This document shows positions 3,915 through 32,595 of a stretch of DNA of 34,030 nucleotides, piece by piece (within the stretch, counting starts at the first letter, position 1; the number at the start of each line of letters is the position of its first letter). The notes beneath the pieces were generated by a model. It was not told the origin of the DNA, ran no database searches, and saw only the letters and a program-made list of their open reading frames with translations. Source of the DNA: a virus; the IMG/VR virus record IMGVR_UViG_3300009008_000141, positions 1 to 34,030 of that record. One strand, written 5' to 3'. The translations under genes were made by a program, and so were the position numbers.

Positions 3915-6900
3915 TTAATCATCGAATGCTGCACCATTATTTGTTATGATAAAGTCAATTGCGATGAACTCCAAAGCCTTAGCTGGCTTTATGAATATCT
4001 TTGCATACATGATGTTTCTGTCTACCAAATCAGGAGTAGTAGTAGTTTCGTCCAATACGACCCTGTACTGCTCAAGACCAAAGTTGGCTTTCACAGAACT
4101 CAAGAATGGCTCTACTTGACCTCTGAATCTGTTCCAGGTGGCGTTCACATTAGGCTCAAACAAGAGCCCTGAAGCCATCCTAGAAATTTCCTTCTTCAAG
4201 AACACCACAAGTCTTCTAACATTGATTCTGTCAAGTGCAGAAGGCGTTACCTGTAGCGTCTTTTGTCCAAAGATTACAATTCCCTCTGCTGGGAAAGTAG
4301 CTATCGGATTAATGTTTGCCTCATATAGGTCGTCTCTGTCACGAGAAGAGAGTCTTTGTGATGTTGACAAGACAGGTACACCTGCCAAGCCGTCACTCAA
4401 GCCACCTCTGGTGAATCCTGCTGGTGCAAACCATAGATCAGAATTTCTCTCAGTGGACGCGAACGTTCCAAGTGCCACTACTGATGGCGGTACCCAAAGA
4501 TCCTTGTTGGAAATGTCATCCCTGATCTTGACCCATGGAAAGTACGTGCAAGCATAGCTTGAATTTATATTTCTCTTTTCAAGATTCTCAACACAAGTCT
4601 TAACACTGTTGTTGGTGATTCTTGTCTTAAAGTTGCTAGTAGTCTCACTAGATGGTTGATAGCCGTTGTTTTCGACGTCTATAATAGCCAAGCAGTCTCC
4701 TCTGTCTTCAGCGACTCTGATTATGTGGTCGGTGACTAAAGGAGCACGGACGCCTGGGACGCAAATCATGTTAATGTCTGCAACCTCTGGGTCTCCGACT
4801 GAGTCGATTGCCCTCTTGATCGAGTTAGCTGCTGCGTTACTCTGGAAAGTCTGGTTGTCAGCACCTACTATATGGTTACCCAATGGTGCCCTCTCCTTTA
4901 CAGTAAGTCCGTCAAATCCGCCATACATAGGCGAGGTGAAGTTGGTAAACCCAGACTTAACAAGCTCCTTAACGCTCTGCTTTACCGTGTAGCTGTTGCC
5001 CATCTTTCGGGAACCAGACATATAGAACATGTCAGTTAGGCTTGTGCCTACCGCATTTGTTCCAACGAGGTCATCCAGAGAGAATATGAACGATGTTTCT
5101 AGAGTAGATCCATCTCCGCTGGTGGCAGAGTCCCACGCGTCGGCAGGGACGCCCTGTCCACCCCTGGTGATGTCCCAGTAAGATTCGTCGAATGTTGGGT
5201 CTCCAGGAGCACGTCCAGTGAAGACACCAAAGTGAGCTTGCTTATTATTTCTTAGACCCTCTGCAGAAGCAGACATTCTCAAAGGCAGACTTGGGAAAAG
5301 AACCCTTGCTGCTGGATTGTGATTCCCAACTAGCTCGCCCGTGATGCCTGTAATGCCTGGGACCGAGGCGGTGAGTGCTGCAGCGAAGACAGCCGAACTC
5401 TTAAAAGGAGACGTTGATACTGCGCTTGCGAGCATCAAACTACCACTACCAAATACCGCTGTGTGAGCGAGGGTCGACGCGGCGAGAGTGCCCTCAACAT
5501 CACTAGAAGCCGAGTGTACCGTTAATATCGAGTACTGACCATCGCCAATGCCATTGTGAGCAAGGCTAACTGCCTTGTATCTTGGCGGACCAAAAAAGCC
5601 AAATGGCAACATTGCTGCGTCGGTCATACCCTCATGTACGTCCGAGTCCATTTCCACTCTCACAAATGCTGAACGATTTGGGTAAGAGTTGTATGATCTA
5701 TATCTCTGTTCGTAACTATCCCATTCTTGGTATTGGTTACCAATCTTTGCTGCAATGTAATTCGGAGATTGTGGATCTAGGGTACACTGAGAAAATCTCT
5801 CTAGTACTCTTGGGCTGCCATCGGTGTCCTTTGCGTGACGTAGAGTGACGGTAAAGGTTCCGTAAGGACTGACTTCTGTGCCTAGTTTGTGGTCAGAGAT
5901 AGAAACCTTTATATTTCTTCCTGCCCAAGCTCCGTCATCTAGAGCTACAAGCCTAAATAGCTTTTGTTGCTTGCCAGCGTCGAATTGAGTACTGTTGCTG
6001 GTCACGTCCTGGGAGATAAACCAGCCGGTCTTTGCAGGTTGTGTGCTCTTCTGATTGGATCCCCAATCTGCTGTTCCGGAAGTACCCTTGAGTCCTACGA
6101 TGACGCCATAGAGGGAAGAGTCGGCAGTCAGTGCACCTTCGTGGAGCGTCGAGCCATGCATATCCCTAGCGTGTCGATCAAAGGATTCTCCTAGCCAGTA
6201 CTTCTTTCCAGAGCTGACTTGAGCACCAGCCAAAGCTGGATTTGTGTTAAATACTTTTCTAATATAGTTGTCACTGTTTCTATCGAAATTAAATGTGACC
6301 TTCTTACCAACATTAGCATTGTCAAAAAGAACCGCCGTGAACTCCATATTGGCAGTATTGCTACTTCTTAATGCCAAGGAATTTCCTGCTGCTTGTCCAA
6401 AAGTCCTGGTGTGTCCTCCTCCCGACGGTGATCCGGGTGGGAGATGGGTTGAGGACGTTGCAAAACCAATGTTGAAGCCTGGAAGAAGCGTACCCGAAAG
6501 TTCGATGGCTCCAGCGTCGAAATACCATACTGCCGCAAGTGATCCAGTTGTTGCACTGGAAGCACGATTACCACTGTTCACGTTCAACCATGCGTCGACA
6601 GAATTAGCGCCGGCGGAAGCCGTAGCAGAAGGTGCTCCTAAGAAAGCCCCAACATGATCTCTCTGACCAGAACCACTGGAAAATAAGAATAGACCGTATG
6701 CGCCGCCTCCGGAGGCTGGGGTCGTACTGGTTGCCGCTACGTGGGCGTTATCTAGAGCCCAGCCGGCAGGACCGTTTGATGTTGATGTTGCATCATCGTG
6801 AGCCTCTCCCAAAACTCTTACTATAGTAGCTGGAGCGGCGTTTCTAAGGTAAGCCAACGCAGCGTAACCAGCGTATGTGGGACCCATCTTGTTACCCTCT

Positions 6901-7118
6901 CTCCAGGCATCACCACCTCTACCTCCTGGGATAGGGTTGCCAAAAATTCGTATAAAATCTGATACAGATTCTACACGGATGGGGCGGTTACTTGGACCCC
7001 TCTCAAATCTACCTATTATTGCCGGGCCAGGTCTGTTTGGCTCCGGTCCAAATTGGCTATTATCAATTTCGTTTATTTGTACTCCGGGTGAGACGAACTT
7101 AAATCTATCAACGGACAT
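3915..7118 (-). CDS. 18: Contractile tail sheath protein (gp18-like), oversized
   Basis: The N-terminus has the sheath signature (SPGVQINEIDNS, then GPAIIGRFERGP and a VSDFIRIFG element). The C-terminal roughly 350 residues contain the conserved contractile core: ADINMICVPGV, a WFAPAGFTRGG element, the LDRINVRRLVVFLKKEI helix, NRFRGQVEPFL and the closing YAKIFIKPAKALEFIAIDF strands. Sheath subunits form helical rings around the tube and contract to drive it into the cell. At 1067 residues it is far longer than T4 gp18 (659). The extra mass is a Gly/Ser/Thr/Ala-rich central region, about residues 110-620, probably surface domains. Upstream are an AAGGAG-type Shine-Dalgarno, a T4-type late promoter octamer, an ACTATTTA motif and a strong terminator that isolates it from the fibre gene. 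Confidence 0.93.
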   Translation of the reverse strand: MSVDRFKFVSPGVQINEIDNSQFGPEPNRPGPAIIGRFERGPSNRPIRVESVSDFIRIFGNPIPGGRGGDAWREGNKMGPTYAGYAALAYLRNAAPATIVRVLGEAHDDATSTSNGPAGWALDNAHVAATSTTPASGGGAYGLFLFSSGSGQRDHVGAFLGAPSATASAGANSVDAWLNVNSGNRASSATTGSLAAVWYFDAGAIELSGTLLPGFNIGFATSSTHLPPGSPSGGGHTRTFGQAAGNSLALRSSNTANMEFTAVLFDNANVGKKVTFNFDRNSDNYIRKVFNTNPALAGAQVSSGKKYWLGESFDRHARDMHGSTLHEGALTADSSLYGVIVGLKGTSGTADWGSNQKSTQPAKTGWFISQDVTSNSTQFDAGKQQKLFRLVALDDGAWAGRNIKVSISDHKLGTEVSPYGTFTVTLRHAKDTDGSPRVLERFSQCTLDPQSPNYIAAKIGNQYQEWDSYEQRYRSYNSYPNRSAFVRVEMDSDVHEGMTDAAMLPFGFFGPPRYKAVSLAHNGIGDGQYSILTVHSASSDVEGTLAASTLAHTAVFGSGSLMLASAVSTSPFKSSAVFAAALTASVPGITGITGELVGNHNPAARVLFPSLPLRMSASAEGLRNNKQAHFGVFTGRAPGDPTFDESYWDITRGGQGVPADAWDSATSGDGSTLETSFIFSLDDLVGTNAVGTSLTDMFYMSGSRKMGNSYTVKQSVKELVKSGFTNFTSPMYGGFDGLTVKERAPLGNHIVGADNQTFQSNAAANSIKRAIDSVGDPEVADINMICVPGVRAPLVTDHIIRVAEDRGDCLAIIDVENNGYQPSSETTSNFKTRITNNSVKTCVENLEKRNINSSYACTYFPWVKIRDDISNKDLWVPPSVVALGTFASTERNSDLWFAPAGFTRGGLSDGLAGVPVLSTSQRLSSRDRDDLYEANINPIATFPAEGIVIFGQKTLQVTPSALDRINVRRLVVFLKKEISRMASGLLFEPNVNATWNRFRGQVEPFLSSVKANFGLEQYRVVLDETTTTPDLVDRNIMYAKIFIKPAKALEFIAIDFIITNNGAAFDD

Positions 7119-7165
7119 GCTTATTTCTCCTTAAAAATGACGATTTTGCGATAAGAATCGGCTAT

Positions 7166-7173
7166 TATTTATA
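7166..7173 (-). promoter_or_regulatory. T4-type late promoter octamer TATAAATA
   Basis: The sense strand reads TATAAATA exactly, 47 bases before the sheath ATG. This is the T4 gp55 late -10 octamer. It is the only sense-oriented intergenic copy I found, and the same octamer also occurs by chance inside the terminase and primase genes, so support is modest. Confidence 0.35.
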
Positions 7174-7186
7174 ATTCTTTCTTAAA

Positions 7187-7194
7187 TAAATAGT
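7187..7194 (-). promoter_or_regulatory. ACTATTTA motif, candidate late promoter for sheath gene
   Basis: The sense strand reads ACTATTTA in the gap between the terminator after the fibre gene and the sheath start. At 68 bases from the ATG it is the most distant of the nine copies. Confidence 0.35.
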
Positions 7195-7235
7195 CTTTAA
7201 TAAACCAAAAGGTATCGTAAATAAGAAGTGATATT

Positions 7236-7259
7236 AAAAAGGGGGGGCATAGCCCCCCC
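7236..7259 (-). terminator. Intrinsic terminator after tail fibre gene
   Basis: Seven G:C pairs plus an inner C:G pair close a three-base loop, and the minus strand then reads TTTTT. It lies about 30 bases past the stop codon of the fibre gene. Classic Rho-independent structure. Confidence 0.85.
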
Positions 7260-7290
7260 AGTCCTGATTTTGAAACCAGAGACTAACGGC

Positions 7291-10200
7291 TTAGGCGACT
7301 CCTGAGCCAGATAGGAATGTAACAGTAAGGATATCATCTGAATCCAAAGCAAGTCCTTCATTCATGAAGATCTTCCATTGTGATCCAGTACCACTGCCAC
7401 TGTTGACACGATAGTCAGCATGTGGCGCACTACTGCCAGTCTTATTGGAATCTCCCAAGTCATGCTCGCCGTGTAATAGGATACCATTTAGGTAGACCAT
7501 CAGCGTACCTGACTGTGGGATCGCCGCCAAGGACGCAGTCGTATATGGTGTTCCCATCGCATGGGTTGCAAACATGCCCTTAGTTGGTACAGAGCCAGAA
7601 ATATTAGAGCCGTCTGCGCGGACAAAAATATTCTTTCTCCAGCCAACACTAAGTCGACCAGAAGTGTATACCAAGCCACCATGTGCATCAGCGTTATTCT
7701 GAATAACGTCCTTGTTTATCTTAGCCTTGGTAACAGCTAATGCGCCAATCTTTCCAGCCGTAACTGCTCCATCGTTGATCTTTGCAGTTATTACTGCCGA
7801 ATCAAGAATGGCTGCGGATAGGACTGAGCCAGTCTGCAAATTATCCTGTGTCACTATGCCAAGACCGTGCAACTTGTTTACGGTCACTTCGTGTGCAGTG
7901 ACTGCAGAGCCAGAAATGGTTCCGCCTACTGTTATCGCAGATGCAGTCAACTGACCCGTGGTGCCATAAATTGCTGCAACACTGCCAACGACAGTATTTG
8001 CGGCGGAACCGTCAAGTAAGTTAATTTCTGCAGCAGTTGAAGTAACCGCCGTACCTGCTAGTGACAAAGCACCAGAGATCGCGACCGTGCCTGCAAATCC
8101 TGCATAACCTGCGACTTCCAACGAGTCGTTAATATCAGCGTGGACCATTGTTGCTTTCGTACCAACGTTAAGGGTTGCTGCACTTACAATAGAGCCAGAA
8201 ATGGTTCCACCGGAAGTAACACCGCCCGCAGTTACAGTACCAACAACGCCAACTGCACCAGCAATAGATGCAGACATTGCACTCAGAAGGGTGTATCTCT
8301 TTGTTGCAGAACCAAGAGCAACCTTGTTATCGTTCTGCGGGATTAAATCAGTAATTTGACCACCATAGAAAGATAGGTCATCAGCATTAGATGAACCAAG
8401 GATAACGCCGTTGGACGCTGTCAAGCTACTGAGTTGCAAACCACCGATCGTCGCATCGTCTGCGGTAAAATCGTGGGCGTTCACTGTAGTACCTGAAACG
8501 TTTGTTGCCGTGAATGCACCTCTTAGTGCAAGGTGACCTGCTTCGATTCTCTTAGCCTGGACCAAAGAACCAGAAATAGATCCGGTAACACCAAAACGCA
8601 TACCTGGAGTTCCTAAGACTGCCATGGTATCAGATCCTGATGCAAAACTCGCTCCTGCTTGTCCATCAACATTGACAATCAGAGCATCTCCGGTGACAAC
8701 TCTGGACCCCAATGTCAAAGACATCAAAGGAGACGAACCAGTTCCTTGAACGCCGACCTTGCCACCAAGCTGAAAACCAGCGCCTACAAAATCACCGGCA
8801 ACCGAACCAGAAACACCTGCAATAATCAAGTTATCCTTGATTTCCAGGGAGTCCTTGGTAACCGTTCTGGATACGATAGTGTCGACATCCAAAGATGTGA
8901 TCCTCGCATAAGAAGCGGTGATTACATCTATATATCCAGTGTCAATGTGTGCTTCCGCAAATTGCTTTGAAGAAGAACCCAGATCAACCTTACTATCATT
9001 CTGCGGAACAAGGTCAGTAATTAGACCTGCAATAATTGACAAATCGTCATTATTGTTATCACCAATTGTCATGCCGCCAGAAGCGGTTAATGAAGTGGTG
9101 GTGATTTGCTTTGCCACAACCTTATCGGCAGTTGTGGTATGCGCTGTCGTTGCAGAACCAGAAATGGTTCCACCAACCGTTAACGCCGATGCAGTCAACT
9201 GACCTGTAGTACCATAAATTGCTGCAACGCTACCAACGACGGTGTTTGCGGCAGAGCCGTCAAGCAAGTTAATCTCTGCAGCCGTCGAAGTAACGGCTGT
9301 GCCCGCTAGTGACAAAGCACCAGAGATCGCGACCGTACCTGCGAAACCTGCATAGCCTGCAACTTCTAGTGAGTCATTGACGTCAACATGTACCATTGTC
9401 GCCTTTGTACCAACATTGAGGGTTGCAGCACTCACAGTCGAGCCTGAAATAGTGTCGGAAACTGTTAGATTGTTTCCAATACCAACATTGTCACTGAAAG
9501 AACCTGACTCTGCAAACACGGTATTCCATGCTAGTGCATTTGTACCCAAGTCATTTAGACCGTCTGTCTTTGGAACCAAACTTGAAATAAACCGACCTGT
9601 GACGTTAACAGTGTCTCCTGTTGCGTCACCAATCAAAACATCACCTGAAGCGGTGAGATTTGTAATAACTGATGCTGACATATAAGCCTTGAGATCTGCC
9701 AATTCGACACCACGTACTTCATCTGCACTGGTATCGTGAACTGGTACAAGGTCTCCGTCTGCAAGGGCTCCGCCCCAGCTGGCAGCACCTTCTGCAGCCA
9801 CAAAATTTAAGTGACCAATTTCTATAGAACCGGAAGCAACGTTGTCTCTGGTGACGCCACCAACTGCAAGTAGCTTGTTCCCTATTCTTGTCCTTGCCAT
9901 GATTGAAAATCCTCCTCCGAGGGCCGCGCCCCCTGTCATTCCTGATAGTGTTAAATCATCTGCCCTGTCGATGTCGACAGAGTGCTGAAAACTGGACGAA
10001 ATTGCAACGTTGCCGTCTGTACCGTCGACGGCGTTCTCTAACGCGATTGAACCTGTGCCATTACTAGTAGAAAACGAAGCTGAAATCTGAATTGGCAGAT
10101 TGTTAATCAATCTTGCCCAATGTTGAGCAAATTCAGATGGATTCAGAGCCCTGGTGCTGCCACCATCGCCATGAAACTGAGTATATGTAACTGAGCCTGA

Positions 10201-24612: not shown

Positions 24613-26199
24613 TTATCCCTTAAACAGCCACGGGAACTGCTCATGTTGACTCTTCGTCTTCTGTATTTTATCAAAAATACTCTTGTTTTTATAGGTATTT
24701 TGACCAGGTATGGTGGTATCCAGTCTATTATTCGTGACAATCATAGAATCCAAACACGCCCTCTTATATTCTGTATTTCTCTGGTTTTCTACCAATGCTG
24801 TGTCCCTTATCCAGCAGCCTATCGCGCAAGCCATAACGAGGTCATCGTTATAACTCCTCATTGCTTCTGGTTTTCCGTTATTCCACACAAAAGTCTTCAT
24901 CTCGTTCAAGAGTCGTGTGGAATATACTTTAATTAGTTTATTTCTTATGAATTCCTCCATCTTAGCGATAACTAATGGTCTAGTTTTGGAAGAAGTTGTA
25001 AATCCGGCAATCGCATTTGATAAATTTTCTGCTCTAATCTGGTCGATGTACTCATGAGTTGATTTTATTGAGTGATAAACGTTTGGATATCCTTTTTCTC
25101 GGAGCTTTTCAAGAACAGCATACCCGACAGAATTATTTTCAACAACTACCATACAGTTTCCGTACTCTCTCCCTGAATTATATAGTATGTCGGAAAATAC
25201 ATCTGGCGTTACTTTTCCTTGATATTCCGCTATGACCTCCATTGTCGATAGTTTTATCGTATGAAAGACTGAATAGTCTCTACCGTCGCCTCTCGCAACA
25301 TCAGCAGATATTAGGTAATCCTCGCCGGGGGCGAACTCTTCCCATATCCAATAATTTCTGTCAAAACCTGTTCTGTATTTTGGCTCTCTAATTAAATTTT
25401 CTATCCAAGCGATATCATCTCCGTGGAAAACAGTCTCGCCCGACATATTAAAATTGCACTCAAGTTCTTGTGCGATTTCTCTCCTGGACATATTTTTTGT
25501 TTCTTTTTCGAACCAATCCTTGTCTCTGTCGGGGTGACGGTCCCAGGGTAGAACAGTTGCATAAAAATCATTTAGCCTTTGGTCTGCTTCGATGTACGTC
25601 TTGTGAAACCAATTACCCACACCGTTTGGAGTGGATAGGGCGATACAGCGTCCACCAGTTGACAAAGTAGGGTACAAGCCCATCCACAAGTCGTCTAGTC
25701 CGTCGACGTGGGCTGCCTCATCAATAACAAGAAGAGAAAGAGCTTCTGAACGGCCGGCGTCCCCACTGGTGGATGACGCTTTTATCTGAGACCCGTTCGT
25801 AAGTTCGAACGAAGTCCTATTGTCAACACTGACCGTTGCTATTGTTAAGAAATCTGGCACGTTCTTCAGTATGTTCTTAACTTTTTTTACTAGGTTTGAC
25901 GCTGTTCCAAACTTCGTCGCGATTACCAGGACATTCTTTTCTCTGTGGAACAACATCAACCACACAACATAGGCTGCAGTGATAGTGGAGATGCCCAACT
26001 GTCTAGCTTTTAAAATAACGTTAAATCGGTGATCCAGATAGTCTTTGACTAAGTCTTCCTGAAAGTCGTAAAGCTTAAAGGGGATTAGTCCCTTTTGTGG
26101 GTGAGTTATTTTTGCATAATTATTTATAAAGTAGTTCGGATCCTTGCCGCAACGGACAATTTCTTTCATTACTTCCTTCTTGGTTAATTTGAAGGTCAT
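24613..26199 (-). CDS. 17: Terminase large subunit (gp17-like)
   Basis: The packaging motor has an N-terminal ATPase and a C-terminal RNase H-type nuclease. The sequence shows Walker A ARQLGIST (65-72), Walker B LLVIDEA (156-162), and the coupling motif LSTPNG (188-193). The nuclease acidic residues are D300 in ISADVARGDGRDYS, E354 in VVVENNSVG and D452/D453 in SYNDDLVMACAIG. At 528 residues it is shorter than T4 gp17 (610). The ATG overlaps no gene and has only a weak ribosome site, so translation may be coupled to the preceding gene, which ends four bases before it. No small terminase is obvious nearby. Confidence 0.96.
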   Translation of the reverse strand: MTFKLTKKEVMKEIVRCGKDPNYFINNYAKITHPQKGLIPFKLYDFQEDLVKDYLDHRFNVILKARQLGISTITAAYVVWLMLFHREKNVLVIATKFGTASNLVKKVKNILKNVPDFLTIATVSVDNRTSFELTNGSQIKASSTSGDAGRSEALSLLVIDEAAHVDGLDDLWMGLYPTLSTGGRCIALSTPNGVGNWFHKTYIEADQRLNDFYATVLPWDRHPDRDKDWFEKETKNMSRREIAQELECNFNMSGETVFHGDDIAWIENLIREPKYRTGFDRNYWIWEEFAPGEDYLISADVARGDGRDYSVFHTIKLSTMEVIAEYQGKVTPDVFSDILYNSGREYGNCMVVVENNSVGYAVLEKLREKGYPNVYHSIKSTHEYIDQIRAENLSNAIAGFTTSSKTRPLVIAKMEEFIRNKLIKVYSTRLLNEMKTFVWNNGKPEAMRSYNDDLVMACAIGCWIRDTALVENQRNTEYKRACLDSMIVTNNRLDTTIPGQNTYKNKSIFDKIQKTKSQHEQFPWLFKG

Positions 26200-28304: not shown

Positions 28305-31300
28305 CTATATATTAACGTGTGCAAAGCCAGACTTCCTCTCAATGCTGATCTGCATATCCACGCAATCCTTTAAAGTATCTAGATGTGAAATAAGAATTAC
28401 CGTCTTAAAATATCCCTTAACCATGTCCAGGATTCTAACAAATCCTTCCATATTTTCCTCATCCAAGGCAGTTCCGGGCTCATCCAAAATGAACAAGTCC
28501 GACTTCGGCAGGCTTGATACTGTCAAAAAGGCCAATCGAAGAGCCATCGAGGCTATCGTCTTCTCTGCTCCAGATCCCATCTCCAGGGGTCTAGGGTCGT
28601 GCTTTGGATGCTTAATAAAGATATCCAATTTTTTATCACTGTTCTGAATAAAGATTTCAAAGTCCACTATGTTGGTAAGGATCTTCGCAATCTCCTGGTT
28701 AATTATTGGCAATCTCTCCTTTATGATATTATAGGAAATGCCGTTAGGGTGAGCACAAGACATCAATAAGTCATATGCTGCGAAGTCCGTTGCTAAAGTC
28801 TTGTATTCCCCCTGCTGCTCCTTCAGGGACTTAAGCTTTTCTTCCATGGATCCGTATGACTTGTGAAAAGACAACATGTCTTCGTGACACTGATCATACT
28901 CCTTTTGTTTTATTTGGTGGATCTTTTCACACTCTCTCCTGTGACCCAACAGAGACTCTAGGTTTTCAATCGCCTCTCTGTTGCTCTCGTACTCTTGTTC
29001 TTTTGCCGACAAATCCTTCAGTACGTGCTTAGATCTAAGAATCTCCGTCTTGTTCTTCTCTAGAGATATCTGCATCTCTGCCATGGAATTGGCTACTGTG
29101 TTCTTCTTGTCCAGAAGTCTATTATATTTTTCAATGTATTCATCAATTTTCTGCTGCTCTTCAGATTTGAGACCGCTTCCTACATTGTTTATCTCTGTGC
29201 TGATGGCAGACATGTTCGCTTCTTTTTCTTTGATTACGGAGCCCAAAATCTCGGAACAACCACTGCACATCATATCTCCTTTTCTGACTAATTTTGTCTT
29301 CTCTTCGGAGATCCATTTCATCTGAGATAAGAGAAACTCTAACCGATCCTTGTTTTCTATGATCTTTTCTCTCTTTTCTTGATAAGAGCCAATGTCAAAT
29401 TCTCCCAAAAAATCCTCTATTTTGGAATAGAGCGCCTGGCTCTCTCGCAATTCATTTTGCGTAGAATCATTTTTATCCGAGAGGTGCTCGACTTTATTTT
29501 CCTCTCTGGAAATCTTTTTTCTTAGCGATTTTATGTCAATGATTTCTGTCGGAACAGAGTCTATCTTTTCTTGCACCTCGCTCATCTCCAGGGAGATTTC
29601 TTGAATATCCTCTTTTAGAGTTTCGCAAATGGCTTTGTTCCTCACAATAGCTATTTCACTTTCTGTGATCTTCTTCTTCGCTTCCTCTATCATGGAATCG
29701 TAGTCCACATCTTCAAGCTTCTTTAATGCGCCCTTAGTTAGAGAACTATCCTCTTTTGCCATCTTGAACTTTTTGTCAAAAATCTCTAGATCTAGAAACT
29801 TTGCCAATATTTCTTTTCTCTTTGTAGATCCCTCATTTACGAAAGACAGAGAATCAAGCTGACTTGCCATAGAAGTTGATAGAAAATCATCTAGTGTGCC
29901 AAAGTACTTTCTGATGTTTCTGTCAGTGTCTTGTCTTGAGGTTCCGTTTAGACTTGTCCTGTTCCCAAGCAAATCTACAGTTTCAAAATCTAGGTCTGTT
30001 TTTGCCTCAAGTGTCTCTTCTCCCTTTAGCTTCTTTACATACTTTTCAGCACGTCTATCAATCAAATATGTCTTATCATCAACGCCAACAATCGCCCTTA
30101 CCGAACACTTATCCTCGTTTTGGTTGATGACGTTCAAGTTCCTTCTTACGGATTTTGACGTAGAGTTATACAAAGAAAATAACAAAGAGTCCACGACAGA
30201 GGACTTGCCGGAGAAATTCTTTCCGAAAATACCTACGATGCCTTCTAGTTTGGCAAAATCAATTCTATTTCCCTCTCCGTAATTGAACATATTGTCCCAC
30301 TCTAGAGATTTGAGGCTCCAACTTATATTCCTATATGTGTCCTCTTTTTGCTCAATAGCCTTATTGTACCTTGAGTTCAGGTCCAATACGCGCTTCATTA
30401 CATCGTCAGATACTTGAAAATCCTTTAAATAGCCTTTTATTAAATCCTCTTGTGTCTTTAGGTCTCTTAGATCTTTTTGTTCGAACCCATCCCCAGAATC
30501 TAAGGTTATCTTTTTTGTAGCTGCGCGATTCAAATAGGTAACAGACTCTGGATCGTGCCTGTACTTGATTATCTCTACTGCATGGCGCATCTTATCTAGA
30601 GAAATACTACTATCAGATACAAGCCTCAACCTCGCACCCTTCGGAACACTTATATCGTCTGGTAGGTCTCCCTTGTTGGTGAGGGGGATTGTGATAAATG
30701 GTTTTGGATTATCGAAAGTGATTAACTTATTGGTAAACTCATCTTTGCTCTCAATATCCCACAGTAAATAACCCTTATCTAGTGATTCTCCGAAGTTCTG
30801 CTGAACAGTTGAGCCCGCATACCAGATACGGCCGTCCTTGTCGAGAGGTTGAGTCTTATGTATATCTCCCAAAAAGGCAAAATCAAACTCACTGAAGATC
30901 TCAATGTCGTGGTCGCCGCCGAGGGTCCAGTTTAAGTCGGTCTTAGATTTATCGATGGCTCCATGATAGAGGGCTATATTTATCTTGTCTGGATCTGTTG
31001 GGTCGACCCAGTTCTCTTCGTCAAACACAGATAACACATTAAGGCAAAACTTGTCGTCAAGATGCACCTCTCCTGCGTTCTTAATTAAATGTAAGTTAGG
31101 GGAACCAATTGCTTTAACAATTGGACTCAGGGCGTCTTGGCGGTTGTGGTTACGCAAATTGCCATCATGATTTCCTAAAATTATATATGTTGGGGCAATA
31201 TTGCTAAGATTTTCGAAAAAATCTCGTGCCATGTCTACAAACTCTGGTGAAATTTGTGTCTTAGTGTGTGCGATGTCCCCGCAGTGAATAATATAATCCA

Positions 31301-31406
31301 CGTTACTATCAATCAGTGATCGATAGAGCTGATCAAAAACCTCTCTATATTCAAAATGATATTTAAGATTTCTAATGTGGGTGTCCGCAATATGCGCGAA
31401 TCTCAT
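28305..31406 (-). CDS. Fused Mre11-Rad50 (SbcD-SbcC; gp47-gp46) recombination nuclease
   Basis: One 1033-residue chain contains both halves of the complex that T4 makes as gp47 and gp46. Residues 1 to about 330 form a metallophosphoesterase with all Mre11 motifs: D8-T-H10, CGD44, GNH80D, H148 and GDIH183. After a short linker comes the Rad50 ATPase: Walker A GKNFSGKS (395-402), a coiled coil of about 330 residues broken by the zinc hook C714-S-G-C717, the signature MGSGAEK (943-949), Walker B LFILDEP (971-977) and a closing H-loop ISHLD. The complex resects DNA ends and feeds recombination-dependent replication. Every catalytic motif is intact, so both activities should be present. It has its own sigma70-type promoter and GGAGG ribosome site. 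The fusion is the main oddity. Confidence 0.95.
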   Translation of the reverse strand: MRFAHIADTHIRNLKYHFEYREVFDQLYRSLIDSNVDYIIHCGDIAHTKTQISPEFVDMARDFFENLSNIAPTYIILGNHDGNLRNHNRQDALSPIVKAIGSPNLHLIKNAGEVHLDDKFCLNVLSVFDEENWVDPTDPDKINIALYHGAIDKSKTDLNWTLGGDHDIEIFSEFDFAFLGDIHKTQPLDKDGRIWYAGSTVQQNFGESLDKGYLLWDIESKDEFTNKLITFDNPKPFITIPLTNKGDLPDDISVPKGARLRLVSDSSISLDKMRHAVEIIKYRHDPESVTYLNRAATKKITLDSGDGFEQKDLRDLKTQEDLIKGYLKDFQVSDDVMKRVLDLNSRYNKAIEQKEDTYRNISWSLKSLEWDNMFNYGEGNRIDFAKLEGIVGIFGKNFSGKSSVVDSLLFSLYNSTSKSVRRNLNVINQNEDKCSVRAIVGVDDKTYLIDRRAEKYVKKLKGEETLEAKTDLDFETVDLLGNRTSLNGTSRQDTDRNIRKYFGTLDDFLSTSMASQLDSLSFVNEGSTKRKEILAKFLDLEIFDKKFKMAKEDSSLTKGALKKLEDVDYDSMIEEAKKKITESEIAIVRNKAICETLKEDIQEISLEMSEVQEKIDSVPTEIIDIKSLRKKISREENKVEHLSDKNDSTQNELRESQALYSKIEDFLGEFDIGSYQEKREKIIENKDRLEFLLSQMKWISEEKTKLVRKGDMMCSGCSEILGSVIKEKEANMSAISTEINNVGSGLKSEEQQKIDEYIEKYNRLLDKKNTVANSMAEMQISLEKNKTEILRSKHVLKDLSAKEQEYESNREAIENLESLLGHRRECEKIHQIKQKEYDQCHEDMLSFHKSYGSMEEKLKSLKEQQGEYKTLATDFAAYDLLMSCAHPNGISYNIIKERLPIINQEIAKILTNIVDFEIFIQNSDKKLDIFIKHPKHDPRPLEMGSGAEKTIASMALRLAFLTVSSLPKSDLFILDEPGTALDEENMEGFVRILDMVKGYFKTVILISHLDTLKDCVDMQISIERKSGFAHVNI

Positions 31407-31438
31407 GTATCCTCCATTTATCTAGATTATATTATAGT

Positions 31439-31467
31439 ATTATATTACAATCTGATAAAGGAGTCAA
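31439..31467 (-). promoter_or_regulatory. Sigma70-type promoter for the Mre11-Rad50 gene
   Basis: The sense strand has TTGACT (31462-31467), exactly 17 bases, then TATAAT (31439-31444): five of six and six of six consensus bases. The -35 overlaps the stop codon of the preceding gene, and transcripts would start about 25 bases before the ATG. It would be read by host RNA polymerase without phage factors. Confidence 0.75.
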
Positions 31468-31655
31468 GTACTTTCTTCGTTTAAGAACTTTACGAATTTT
31501 GTCAAAAAAGCTTGTCTGTCGTTTATGGACAAGTCCTTGAACTCTAGGATTAGTTTTTCTGCTATGTCGTTACCCAAAGTAGAAGAATCTGCTACAGTCA
31601 TTCTCTCTACTTCTTCGCGAATAATTTGCTTTATCTTCTTTCTAGTGATTTCCAT
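31464..31655 (-). CDS. Small unknown protein
   Basis: The 63-residue protein starts MEITRKKIKQIIREEVERM, a basic amphipathic helix I have seen at the N-termini of many environmental phage proteins, then a second helix (GNDIAEKLILEFKDLSINDR) and a third (QAFLTKFVKFLNEE). It is probably a small all-helical protein. There is no Cys or membrane segment. It lies between primase and the recombination nuclease and has a GGGAGA ribosome site. Its stop codon overlaps the -35 element of the next promoter. Function unknown; a replication accessory role is only suggested by context. Confidence 0.65.
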   Translation of the reverse strand: MEITRKKIKQIIREEVERMTVADSSTLGNDIAEKLILEFKDLSINDRQAFLTKFVKFLNEEST

Positions 31656-31668
31656 GTGGATGATCTCC

Positions 31669-32595
31669 CTAAAACCTCAAACACTGATATAAGTAGTCTG
31701 TCGAATCAATAATGGTCGCTTCTTTCTTTCTTGTCTCAAATTCAGACCTGGACATACTGCCCACATCCTCATACGGTGAGACGTCTACCTTATATACAGT
31801 TATATCATATTCTAGAAGCAAATTTATTATTCTTTTCTCTTTTTCGAATGCGTCTGGGTCCAAAGCCATGTATATGGTTGCTTTTTCTTTAATAATTTTT
31901 TGAAATAATTCAGAACCCTCTCTAAGGAAAGACCCCAAAATAGGAACCGCGTTGCCTGCGACGATGGCGTCGAACACGCCCTCGACCAAAACTACGGGCT
32001 TGTCCCAGTCAGTATATAAATCATTAAATACTATGTCCCTACTTGATGGAGGATTCTTATATTTTGGAAATTGATTACCATACGATCTTGCTATGAAATA
32101 GTTTAAGTCTCCATGATTATCAAAAGAAGGTACACATATTCTTCCAGCATATTCACCTTCGTCGCAAAACCCTATCTTCCATCTCAGGATATCTTCCTTC
32201 GTTACGCCCCTCTTCCTCAAGTACGACCTAGCATGGCGAGCACTTAGGGGTCCTGAATTTCCCGTCAAAGTCTTGAAAGACTCTGGCAAGTTAACAACTT
32301 CTGGAACCTTTGGTTCCTTTGTCTTGAAAAGGTCGTCGAAAGTAGTTATATCTACTGTTCCATCTAGGTCAGACCATCTCTTGTGTTCAGAATATGGAGC
32401 ATATCTCTTTAAGAGTTTTACAATCTTTAATCCGGAATATCCGCAAACCCAACATTTGAACACTCCTTTTTCGATATTTATAGATAGTTTTCTTTTGTCG
32501 TGGTCGCATTTGGGGCACTTAAATAGATATTCTTCTCCCGACTGGTAAGATCTGCCGAGGACCCCTTCTAGGATTTCAAGTTTTTCTCCTGCCAT
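31669..32595 (-). CDS. 61: DNA primase, DnaG/gp61 type
   Basis: The 308-residue protein has an N-terminal zinc ribbon (C27-x2-C30 and C48-x2-C51), a central RNA-polymerase-like region (about 105-200) and a TOPRIM fold with E205 in VLVEGVFDA and D246-x-D248 in YMALDPDAF. This is the domain order of DnaG-family primases, which make RNA primers for lagging-strand synthesis; T4 gp61 (342 residues) is the counterpart. It lacks the C-terminal helicase-binding domain of bacterial DnaG. The partner helicase (gp41) is not in the window. The gene overlaps the resolvase gene by 28 bases. Its ribosome site is weak, so translation is probably coupled. Confidence 0.9.
   Translation of the reverse strand: MAGEKLEILEGVLGRSYQSGEEYLFKCPKCDHDKRKLSINIEKGVFKCWVCGYSGLKIVKLLKRYAPYSEHKRWSDLDGTVDITTFDDLFKTKEPKVPEVVNLPESFKTLTGNSGPLSARHARSYLRKRGVTKEDILRWKIGFCDEGEYAGRICVPSFDNHGDLNYFIARSYGNQFPKYKNPPSSRDIVFNDLYTDWDKPVVLVEGVFDAIVAGNAVPILGSFLREGSELFQKIIKEKATIYMALDPDAFEKEKRIINLLLEYDITVYKVDVSPYEDVGSMSRSEFETRKKEATIIDSTDYLYQCLRF

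What the first reader, a model, noticed from the sequence alone, without database searches (positions are those of the whole stretch)
28305..31406. Mre11 nuclease and Rad50 ATPase fused into one polypeptide
T4 and bacteria make gp47/SbcD and gp46/SbcC as separate proteins. Here a single uninterrupted frame carries every Mre11 motif (D8, H10, D44, N79-H80, H148, H183) and then every Rad50 motif (Walker A 395-402, zinc hook C714/C717, signature 943-949, Walker B 971-977). A fixed 1:1 chain, with the nuclease joined to the N-lobe of the ATPase, constrains how the complex assembles and opens. I do not know this fusion as a described family; a few phage examples may exist.
Basis: partly seen in the sequence, partly recalled or inferred. 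Interest (0 to 1): 0.85.

Follow-up and report, generated by a model that had tools for sequence, protein, structure and literature searches.

The report
Fused Mre11–Rad50 DNA-repair enzyme in phage
A virus of bacteria, probably marine, makes a DNA-end-cutting enzyme and its ATP-driven partner as one joined protein; the join is real and shared by dozens of related viruses, but fusions of this kind were already described in 2011.

Summary
Window 28305-31406 (-) is one 1033-codon frame with a complete Mre11-type nuclease (to about 354, Rad50-binding helix pair included) and a complete Rad50-type ATPase (about 361-1033). It is not an assembly artefact: 77 of 80 IMG/VR relatives have the same single frame; two others start inside the gene at a contig end, one has an in-frame stop. 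The junction has constant length (80 of 80 aligned proteins) and is under purifying selection. All 15 long contigs tested have one Mre11-type and one Rad50-type match in this gene. No internal start is conserved.

The novelty claim does not hold: such fusions were described in 2011 (Mimivirus R555 and twelve others, PMC3175470), with the suggestion that aquatic relatives belong to phages. This protein has both active-site substitutions reported for R555.

Most likely it is a T4-type phage's own Mre11/Rad50 in one chain, dimerising into the usual complex and resecting DNA ends for recombination-dependent replication (function inferred). Added here: fixation in a Far-T4-like clade, a constant junction motif, Asp at a metal-ligand position in all fused proteins compared, and a CX6C hook in 58 of 80. 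Verdict: real, well conserved, a new member of a known kind.

The parts
28305..31406 (-). Mre11-Rad50 fusion gene, 1033 aa, single frame
30345..31406 (-). Mre11-type half, residues 1-354: nuclease and capping region (to about 295), then Rad50-binding helix pair (316-330 and 334-354)
   Evidence: Metallophos; predicted structure; VIA-align to SbcD/Mre11 chains over 1 to about 292-303, Z about 19-22, and to E. coli SbcD 6s6v_A over 1-352 (296-360 otherwise barely tested)
30321..30344 (-). junction connector, residues 355-362, between the last helix of the Rad50-binding pair and the first Rad50 strand; carries R359 and N360, with W363 next
   Evidence: helix 334-354 and strand 363-371; R359, N360, W363 invariant in 52 of 52 and 14 of 14
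28308..30326 (-). Rad50-type half, residues 361-1033: Walker A 395-402, hook 714-717, signature 943-949, Walker B 971-977
   Evidence: PHROG_77; VIA-align Z 23.1 to Rad50 chain 3av0_B
31411..31415 (-). GGAGG, likely ribosome-binding site just upstream of the start codon
   Evidence: sequence printed; 66 of 75 relatives with enough upstream sequence have a 4-base or longer Shine-Dalgarno match at the start inferred by alignment
31439..31467 (-). promoter-like site TTGACT-17-TATAAT, 11 of 12 matches (consensus match only)
   Evidence: best of 10 found in the region, against 7.7 expected in shuffles, so the count itself is not above chance
31669..32595 (-). DNA primase, conserved upstream neighbour
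   Evidence: PHROG_47; homologue upstream in 61 of 80 loci and in Mel-JY01 and LR756508
32568..33107 (-). RuvC-like Holliday junction resolvase
   Evidence: PHROG_159; upstream in 51 of 80 loci
24613..26199 (-). T4-type terminase large subunit (marks the phage lineage)
22634..24607 (-). T4-type portal gp20 (marks the phage lineage)
   Evidence: Portal_T4 5.1e-78; nearest named records

Best explanation
It is the Mre11/Rad50 (T4 gp47/gp46) recombination nuclease of a Far-T4-like, probably marine phage, made as one chain: a member of the already described Mre11/Rad50 fusion proteins of the Mimivirus R555 kind. Shown by sequence: complete nuclease and ATPase motifs, a helix pair in the place of the Rad50-binding domain directly before the first Rad50 strand, a junction of constant length under purifying selection, and no second copy of either half in the long contigs tested. 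Inferred: two chains pair through their Mre11 and Rad50 parts to give the usual M2R2 complex; the helix pair binds the root of its own coiled coil; the hook links complexes; ATP-gated access of DNA ends to the nuclease produces the 3' ends that the phage's RecA-type recombinase uses for recombination-dependent replication, and perhaps degrades host DNA, as gp46/gp47 do in T4.
For: Both domains by Pfam, PHROGs and PDB sequences, and by fold: Mre11/SbcD chains Z about 19-22, Rad50 Z 23.1. Single frame in 77 of 80 loci. 55-residue junction block without length change in 80 of 80. pN/pS at residues 311-372 was 0.12 for the window's protein against L003 and 0.04-0.09 in six pairs drawn at random from 74, against 0.19-0.33 in the coils. 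One Mre11-type and one Rad50-type match in the same gene in 15 of 15 long contigs (one contig also has a weak PHROG_77 hit, E 4e-4, in a 2850-aa frame). A RecA-family gene in 11 of 15. Primase and resolvase neighbours. Both substitutions reported for R555 are present. Scaffolds with published R555 relatives also held phage primase genes.
Against: No biochemistry was found for this protein. R555 itself was not aligned (its sequence was not at hand). One of the two R555 substitutions, GDxxH, also occurs in three separate Herelleviridae proteins, and the other, Asp, in separate Vibrio VP06, so neither is unique to fusions. The predicted model has pTM 0.48, so domain placement, and thus cis binding, is not shown. 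Asp at a metal-ligand position could alter or weaken nuclease activity. Two portal relatives with complete genomes (Flavobacterium phage immuto, Rhodothermus phage RM378) give no match to either PHROG; but PHROG_100 also missed the known Mre11 halves of LR756508 and of LR756501's fused gene, so such misses are weak.
Confidence: 0.82

Rival explanations
1. The gene also, or only, yields separate products: an internal start near the junction makes a free Rad50 subunit, or the chain is cleaved there, so that the working complex is a conventional two-protein one.
For: 28 of 77 genes have some start codon with a 4-base or longer Shine-Dalgarno match within -45 to +15 codons of the junction motif (no shuffled control was run).
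Against: Those sites are scattered: at most 6 genes share one position and codon. Among columns 300-394 the most frequent Met column has 38 of 80. The connector is 8 residues in the model, and the junction block is constant in length and under purifying selection, unlike a loose cleavable linker.
Confidence: 0.08
2. Assembly or sequencing artefact joining two genes.
For: The window is a 34-kb fragment, and one relative (L029) carries an in-frame stop in the Mre11 half.
Against: 77 of 80 loci, 58 clusters at 90% identity, have the same uninterrupted frame, as do the named phage record Mel-JY01 and four contigs of genome assemblies (L089, L090, L092, L094).
Confidence: 0.01
3. The protein has lost nuclease function and works as a structural or tethering SMC-like protein, or in counter-defence rather than in replication.
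For: Asp181 replaces a His that takes part in nuclease activity in P. furiosus Mre11 (the same change is reported for R555 in PMC3175470; its role as a metal ligand is recalled).
Against: The other catalytic residues examined are 80 of 80, and the Asp itself is 80 of 80, which points to a retained site rather than decay. The gene sits with primase and resolvase, and 11 of 15 long contigs also have a RecA-family gene.
Confidence: 0.07

Closest known systems
Mimivirus R555 and aquatic metagenome relatives (Mre11/Rad50 fusion proteins, PMC3175470)
   Same: N-terminal Mre11, C-terminal Rad50 in one chain; capping and HLH region kept; GDxxH, and Asp for P. furiosus His206; relatives enriched in aquatic viral fractions, some scaffolds with phage primase genes
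   Different: R555 is 1351 aa with a cell-like long coil, from a giant virus of Acanthamoeba; this is 1033 aa from a T4-type phage. R555's sequence was not aligned here.
Microcystis phage Mel-JY01 WWT39521.1 (annotated 'AAA domain containing protein')
   Same: full-length fusion, 29.5% identity, RNxxW junction, GDIH, primase upstream; also the top-ranked record for the portal
   Different: distant; recorded host is a cyanobacterium; not annotated as a fusion
Rhizobium phage RHph_Y65 QIG72798.1 (959 aa)
   Same: single chain matching PHROG_100 then PHROG_77; GDIH
   Different: very divergent, no RNxxW junction, place in the trees unsure; possibly a separate fusion event
T4 gp47/gp46 and cyanophage, Stenotrophomonas and Methylophilales phage homologues
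   Same: same two domains and gene order (47 before 46)
   Different: two genes, overlapping by 1-4 bases in some and with small genes between in T4 and S-CAM9; shorter Rad50 part (560-574 aa against about 673); GHxH instead of GDIH in these four
E. coli SbcD/SbcC; archaeal and eukaryotic Mre11/Rad50
   Same: both folds (6s6v, 3qg5, 3av0)
   Different: separate chains; E. coli SbcC is far longer (1048 aa)

Membership tests
Mre11/Rad50 fusion proteins (R555 kind, PMC3175470) | Mre11 then Rad50 in one open frame | tested here: met
Mre11/Rad50 fusion proteins (R555 kind, PMC3175470) | capping and HLH region kept, with a short connector to Rad50 | tested here: met
   helices 316-330 and 334-354, connector of 8 residues in the predicted model; 6s6v_A aligned over 1-352. 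The paper estimated 9-12 linker residues.
Mre11/Rad50 fusion proteins (R555 kind, PMC3175470) | R555's reported substitutions: GDxxH, and Asp for P. furiosus His206 | tested here: met
   H47 in 52 of 52; D181 in 80 of 80; GDIH in 13 of 13 fused against 1 of 12 separate proteins. GDxxH is less telling: LR756501's fusion lacks it and three separate Herelleviridae proteins have it.
Mre11/Rad50 fusion proteins (R555 kind, PMC3175470) | same clade as R555 | not tested
T4 gp46/gp47 family | homology of both halves to the PHROGs that hold T4 gp47 and gp46 | tested here: met
   T4 itself matches the same two PHROGs
T4 gp46/gp47 family | role in end resection, recombination-dependent replication and host DNA degradation | not testable with these tools
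   inferred from homology and neighbours
Rad50/SbcC | Walker A, signature, Walker B, two-Cys hook at the coil tip | tested here: met
   hook spacing is CX6C in 58 of 80, CX2C in the window
Metal site of the cellular type (E. coli SbcD, P. furiosus Mre11) | GHxH at the His206/His208 positions | tested here: not met
   GDIH instead; the other catalytic residues are present and the fold matches Mre11/SbcD. The protein is therefore not filed as carrying the canonical site.

The most novel reading that the evidence does not exclude
The fused enzymes form a mechanistically distinct class of Mre11-Rad50: an Asp-for-His change at the second metal site goes with fusion (13 of 13 fused, eight of these from the window's own clade, against 1 of 12 separate proteins), the nuclease is anchored to its own ATPase lobe by a connector of constant length, and most IMG/VR members use a CX6C rather than CX2C hook, so the cycle of ATP-driven opening and the metal chemistry would differ from those of two-protein complexes.
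Probability: 0.15. Interest if true: 0.5.

Novelty: new member of a known kind. Interest (0 to 1): 0.28.

Why it matters
A compact natural single-chain Mre11-Rad50 with fixed stoichiometry would be a convenient object for biochemistry and cryo-EM of a complex usually studied as two proteins. The clade shows that the fusion is a stable arrangement in many phage contigs, as suggested in 2011, not a rare accident. It answers no long-standing question by itself.

Tried and rejected
Artefact: rejected by the relatives. Internal start: no conserved site. Second copies of either half: none in 15 of 15 long contigs apart from one weak hit in G014. Among other records the 735-kb LR756501 carries the fusion and also a separate gp46-like gene, and PHROG_77 gave weak extra hits in Mel-JY01 and Stenotrophomonas IME-SM1 that I did not follow up.

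One origin of all fusions: not settled. In the Mre11 tree the 13 fused rows are one side of a branch, support 84/91, not starred. In the Rad50 tree 12 of 14 group (89/69), LR756501 and Rhizobium RHph_Y65 fall outside on long branches, only 8% of 200 bootstrap trees have all fused rows together, and one clade is not rejected (AU p 0.128). Long branches weaken both trees. LR756508's interrupted Mre11 half was left out of the Mre11 tree; the cut in RHph_Y65 was set by hand.

Annotated phages: 566 records matched, only 4 with 80% of the query covered: LR756508, Mel-JY01, and Lactobacillus phage 3-521 twice, which is two separate genes. Plasmids: 114 records matched, all under 60% identity, none covering 80% of the query and none from Clostridium, so the published C. 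kluyveri fusion was not recovered; the 15 rows shown match residues 389-1032 only. Genome assemblies: 15 loci. L089, L090, L092 and L094 hold the whole fusion; L091, L093, L095 and L096 hold parts with both halves; the rest match in the Mre11 half only. Rfam search of the LR756508 insert found nothing.

Literature: listings only were seen for (20 of 246 papers; 6 of 6; 19 of 19; 2 of 2; none; 6 of 6; 9 of 9; 7 of 7; 15 of 35). Among these only PMC3175470 is about such fusions by title and abstract; PMC6466248 names R555 once and was not opened. Term searches inside PMC4360716 found no gp46, gp47, Rad50 or fusion, and inside PMC7198788 no Rad50, Mre11, SbcC or fused. The library holds open-licence papers only. 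In one search Ks is saturated in most pairs, so only pN/pS is quoted. SMC, condensin and cohesin chains also match the ATPase half (Z about 19-20), so fold alone does not single out Rad50; sequence models do.

Full report
What is there. Window 28305-31406 on the minus strand is one open frame of 1033 aa starting with ATG, preceded by GGAGG and a TTGACT-17-TATAAT promoter-like site (consensus only). Its first third matches Metallophos and the SbcD PHROG, the rest matches SMC_N/AAA_23 and the SbcC PHROG. PDB sequence matches include Mre11/SbcD for the N-terminus and Rad50, SbcC and SMC for the C-terminus.

Structure. An AlphaFold2 model from 52 family members has mean pLDDT 79.5 but pTM 0.48, so folds are usable and domain placement is not; residues 296-308 are poorly predicted. 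Foldseek and VIA-align, a second look at Foldseek's own PDB matches, pair residues 1 to about 292-303 with SbcD/Mre11 chains (Z about 19-22), 1-352 with E. coli SbcD 6s6v_A (Z 21.3, 335 residues, rmsd 6.7), and 361-1033 with Rad50 (3av0_B, Z 23.1, 346 residues, rmsd 4.5). The stretch 296-360 is otherwise barely tested. In the model two helices (316-330, 334-354), in the place of the Rad50-binding domain, run into the first Rad50 strand (363) through eight residues. The 2011 paper measured about 28 A between the Mre11 C-terminus and Rad50 N-terminus in the T. maritima complex and estimated 9-12 linker residues, so eight residues are just about enough for cis binding. That is inference.

It is not an artefact. 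A scan of IMG/VR gave 344 relatives, of which the best 80 were kept. In 77 of the 80 the gene is a single frame from residue 6 or earlier to 1025 or later; the exceptions are L032 and L040, whose contigs begin inside the gene, and L029, which has an in-frame stop in the Mre11 half. The 77 fall into 58 clusters at 90% identity; two loci are identical to the window. Catalytic residues are invariant or nearly so in the 80-row alignment. The 55-residue block across the junction has no length change in 80 of 80. R359, N360 and W363 are invariant in 52 of 52 and 14 of 14. pN/pS there is 0.12 (window's protein against L003) and 0.04-0.09 in six pairs drawn at random from 74, lower than in the coils.

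It stands in for both genes. In 15 of 15 long contigs tested (91-203 kb, chosen from the 80; completeness unknown) the Mre11-type and the Rad50-type match are both in this gene; one contig has an additional weak hit in a 2850-aa frame. A RecA-family gene is found in 11 of the same 15. The primase lies upstream in 61 of 80 loci, a RuvC-like resolvase in 51, the terminase downstream in 59 and the portal in 52; many loci are cut short by contig ends. For the portal the top-ranked named records are Mel-JY01 (42.5% over 62%) and Flavobacterium phage immuto (45.2% over 58%), with Rhodothermus phage RM378 lower in the list. RM378 is the sole isolate placed in the Far-T4 group by PMC7198788 (passages). 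I therefore call the lineage Far-T4-like, by inference; 'marine' rests on recalled habits of the source collections and organisms, not on a call. Neither immuto nor RM378 matches PHROG_100 or PHROG_77, but one search also missed Mre11 halves known to be there in LR756508 and in LR756501's fused gene, so these misses are weak.

Unusual letters. Where T4, cyanophage, Stenotrophomonas, Methylophilales, Herelleviridae, Erwinia and Dickeya phage and E. coli proteins read GHxH, the fused proteins read GDIH (13 of 13, eight of them from the window's clade), as does one separate protein, Vibrio phage VP06 (1 of 12); LR756508's interrupted copy also reads GDIH. PMC3175470 reports Asp for His206, and His for the last Asp of GDxxD, in R555. 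GDxxH is less telling: it is also in three separate Herelleviridae proteins and absent from LR756501's fusion. The hook is CX6C in 58 of 80 and CX2C in 21 of 80, the window being CX2C.

Origin. Some separate homologues abut: Stenotrophomonas IME-SM1 gp47/gp46 overlap by 4 bases, Methylophilales phage Melnitz by 1, Vibrio VP06 by 1, E. coli sbcD/sbcC by 4, so a small change could fuse them; T4, S-CAM9 and Twort have one or two small genes between. The trees group most fusions but do not decide between one origin and several. The RNxxW junction shared by the window's clade, Mel-JY01, two assembly contigs and LR756501 favours one origin for those; Rhizobium phage RHph_Y65 lacks it and may be separate.

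Known or new. Yoshida et al. 2011 (PMC3175470; parts 1-3 of 5 read) described thirteen such fusions, including a Bacillus phage one that lacks parts, argued for compatibility with the ordinary complex, and proposed that aquatic relatives might be phage genes. In the listings of my searches (two of them only partly shown) no later paper on the phage clade appeared. This is a good, intact phage member of that kind. What is added is its fixation as the only copy found in the long contigs of a Far-T4-like clade, the constant junction, the spread of the Asp signature and the CX6C hook.

Mechanism. As in the best explanation: sequence and conservation are shown; dimerisation, cis binding, ATP-gated cutting and the role in recombination-dependent replication are inferred from T4 gp46/gp47 and Mre11-Rad50.

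Noticed in passing
L082 (LR756508) about 6665-7582: The fused gene of this 484-kb phage is interrupted shortly after the GDIHK active-site motif by a 305-aa frame with Cys pairs that by eye looks like a zinc-finger or homing-endonuclease protein; possibly an intron, but no Rfam family matched. Its portal match is also in three pieces.
   Followed up: partly
LR756501 (735 kb; L083 and record positions 670999-672753): This huge phage carries both the fused gene (1202 aa) and a separate gp46-like gene, plus a small Mre11-like match at 451881-452144.
   Followed up: partly
L105 3501-6380: Rhizobium phage RHph_Y65 has a 959-aa fusion, annotated only as 'recombination endonuclease protein', that may be an independent fusion event.
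   Followed up: partly
L091: A 2.8-Mb 'WOR-3 bacterium' chromosome record holds a 698-aa frame matching residues 2-623 of the fusion (56% identity in the best segment); phage DNA or a mis-assembly is a guess.
   Followed up: no
L029 6595-6597: An otherwise close relative has an in-frame stop in the Mre11 half; not checked whether it is real or a sequencing error.
   Followed up: no
window 31464-31655 (-): A 63-aa frame lies between primase and the fused gene; Mel-JY01 has a small annotated gene at the same place.
   Followed up: no
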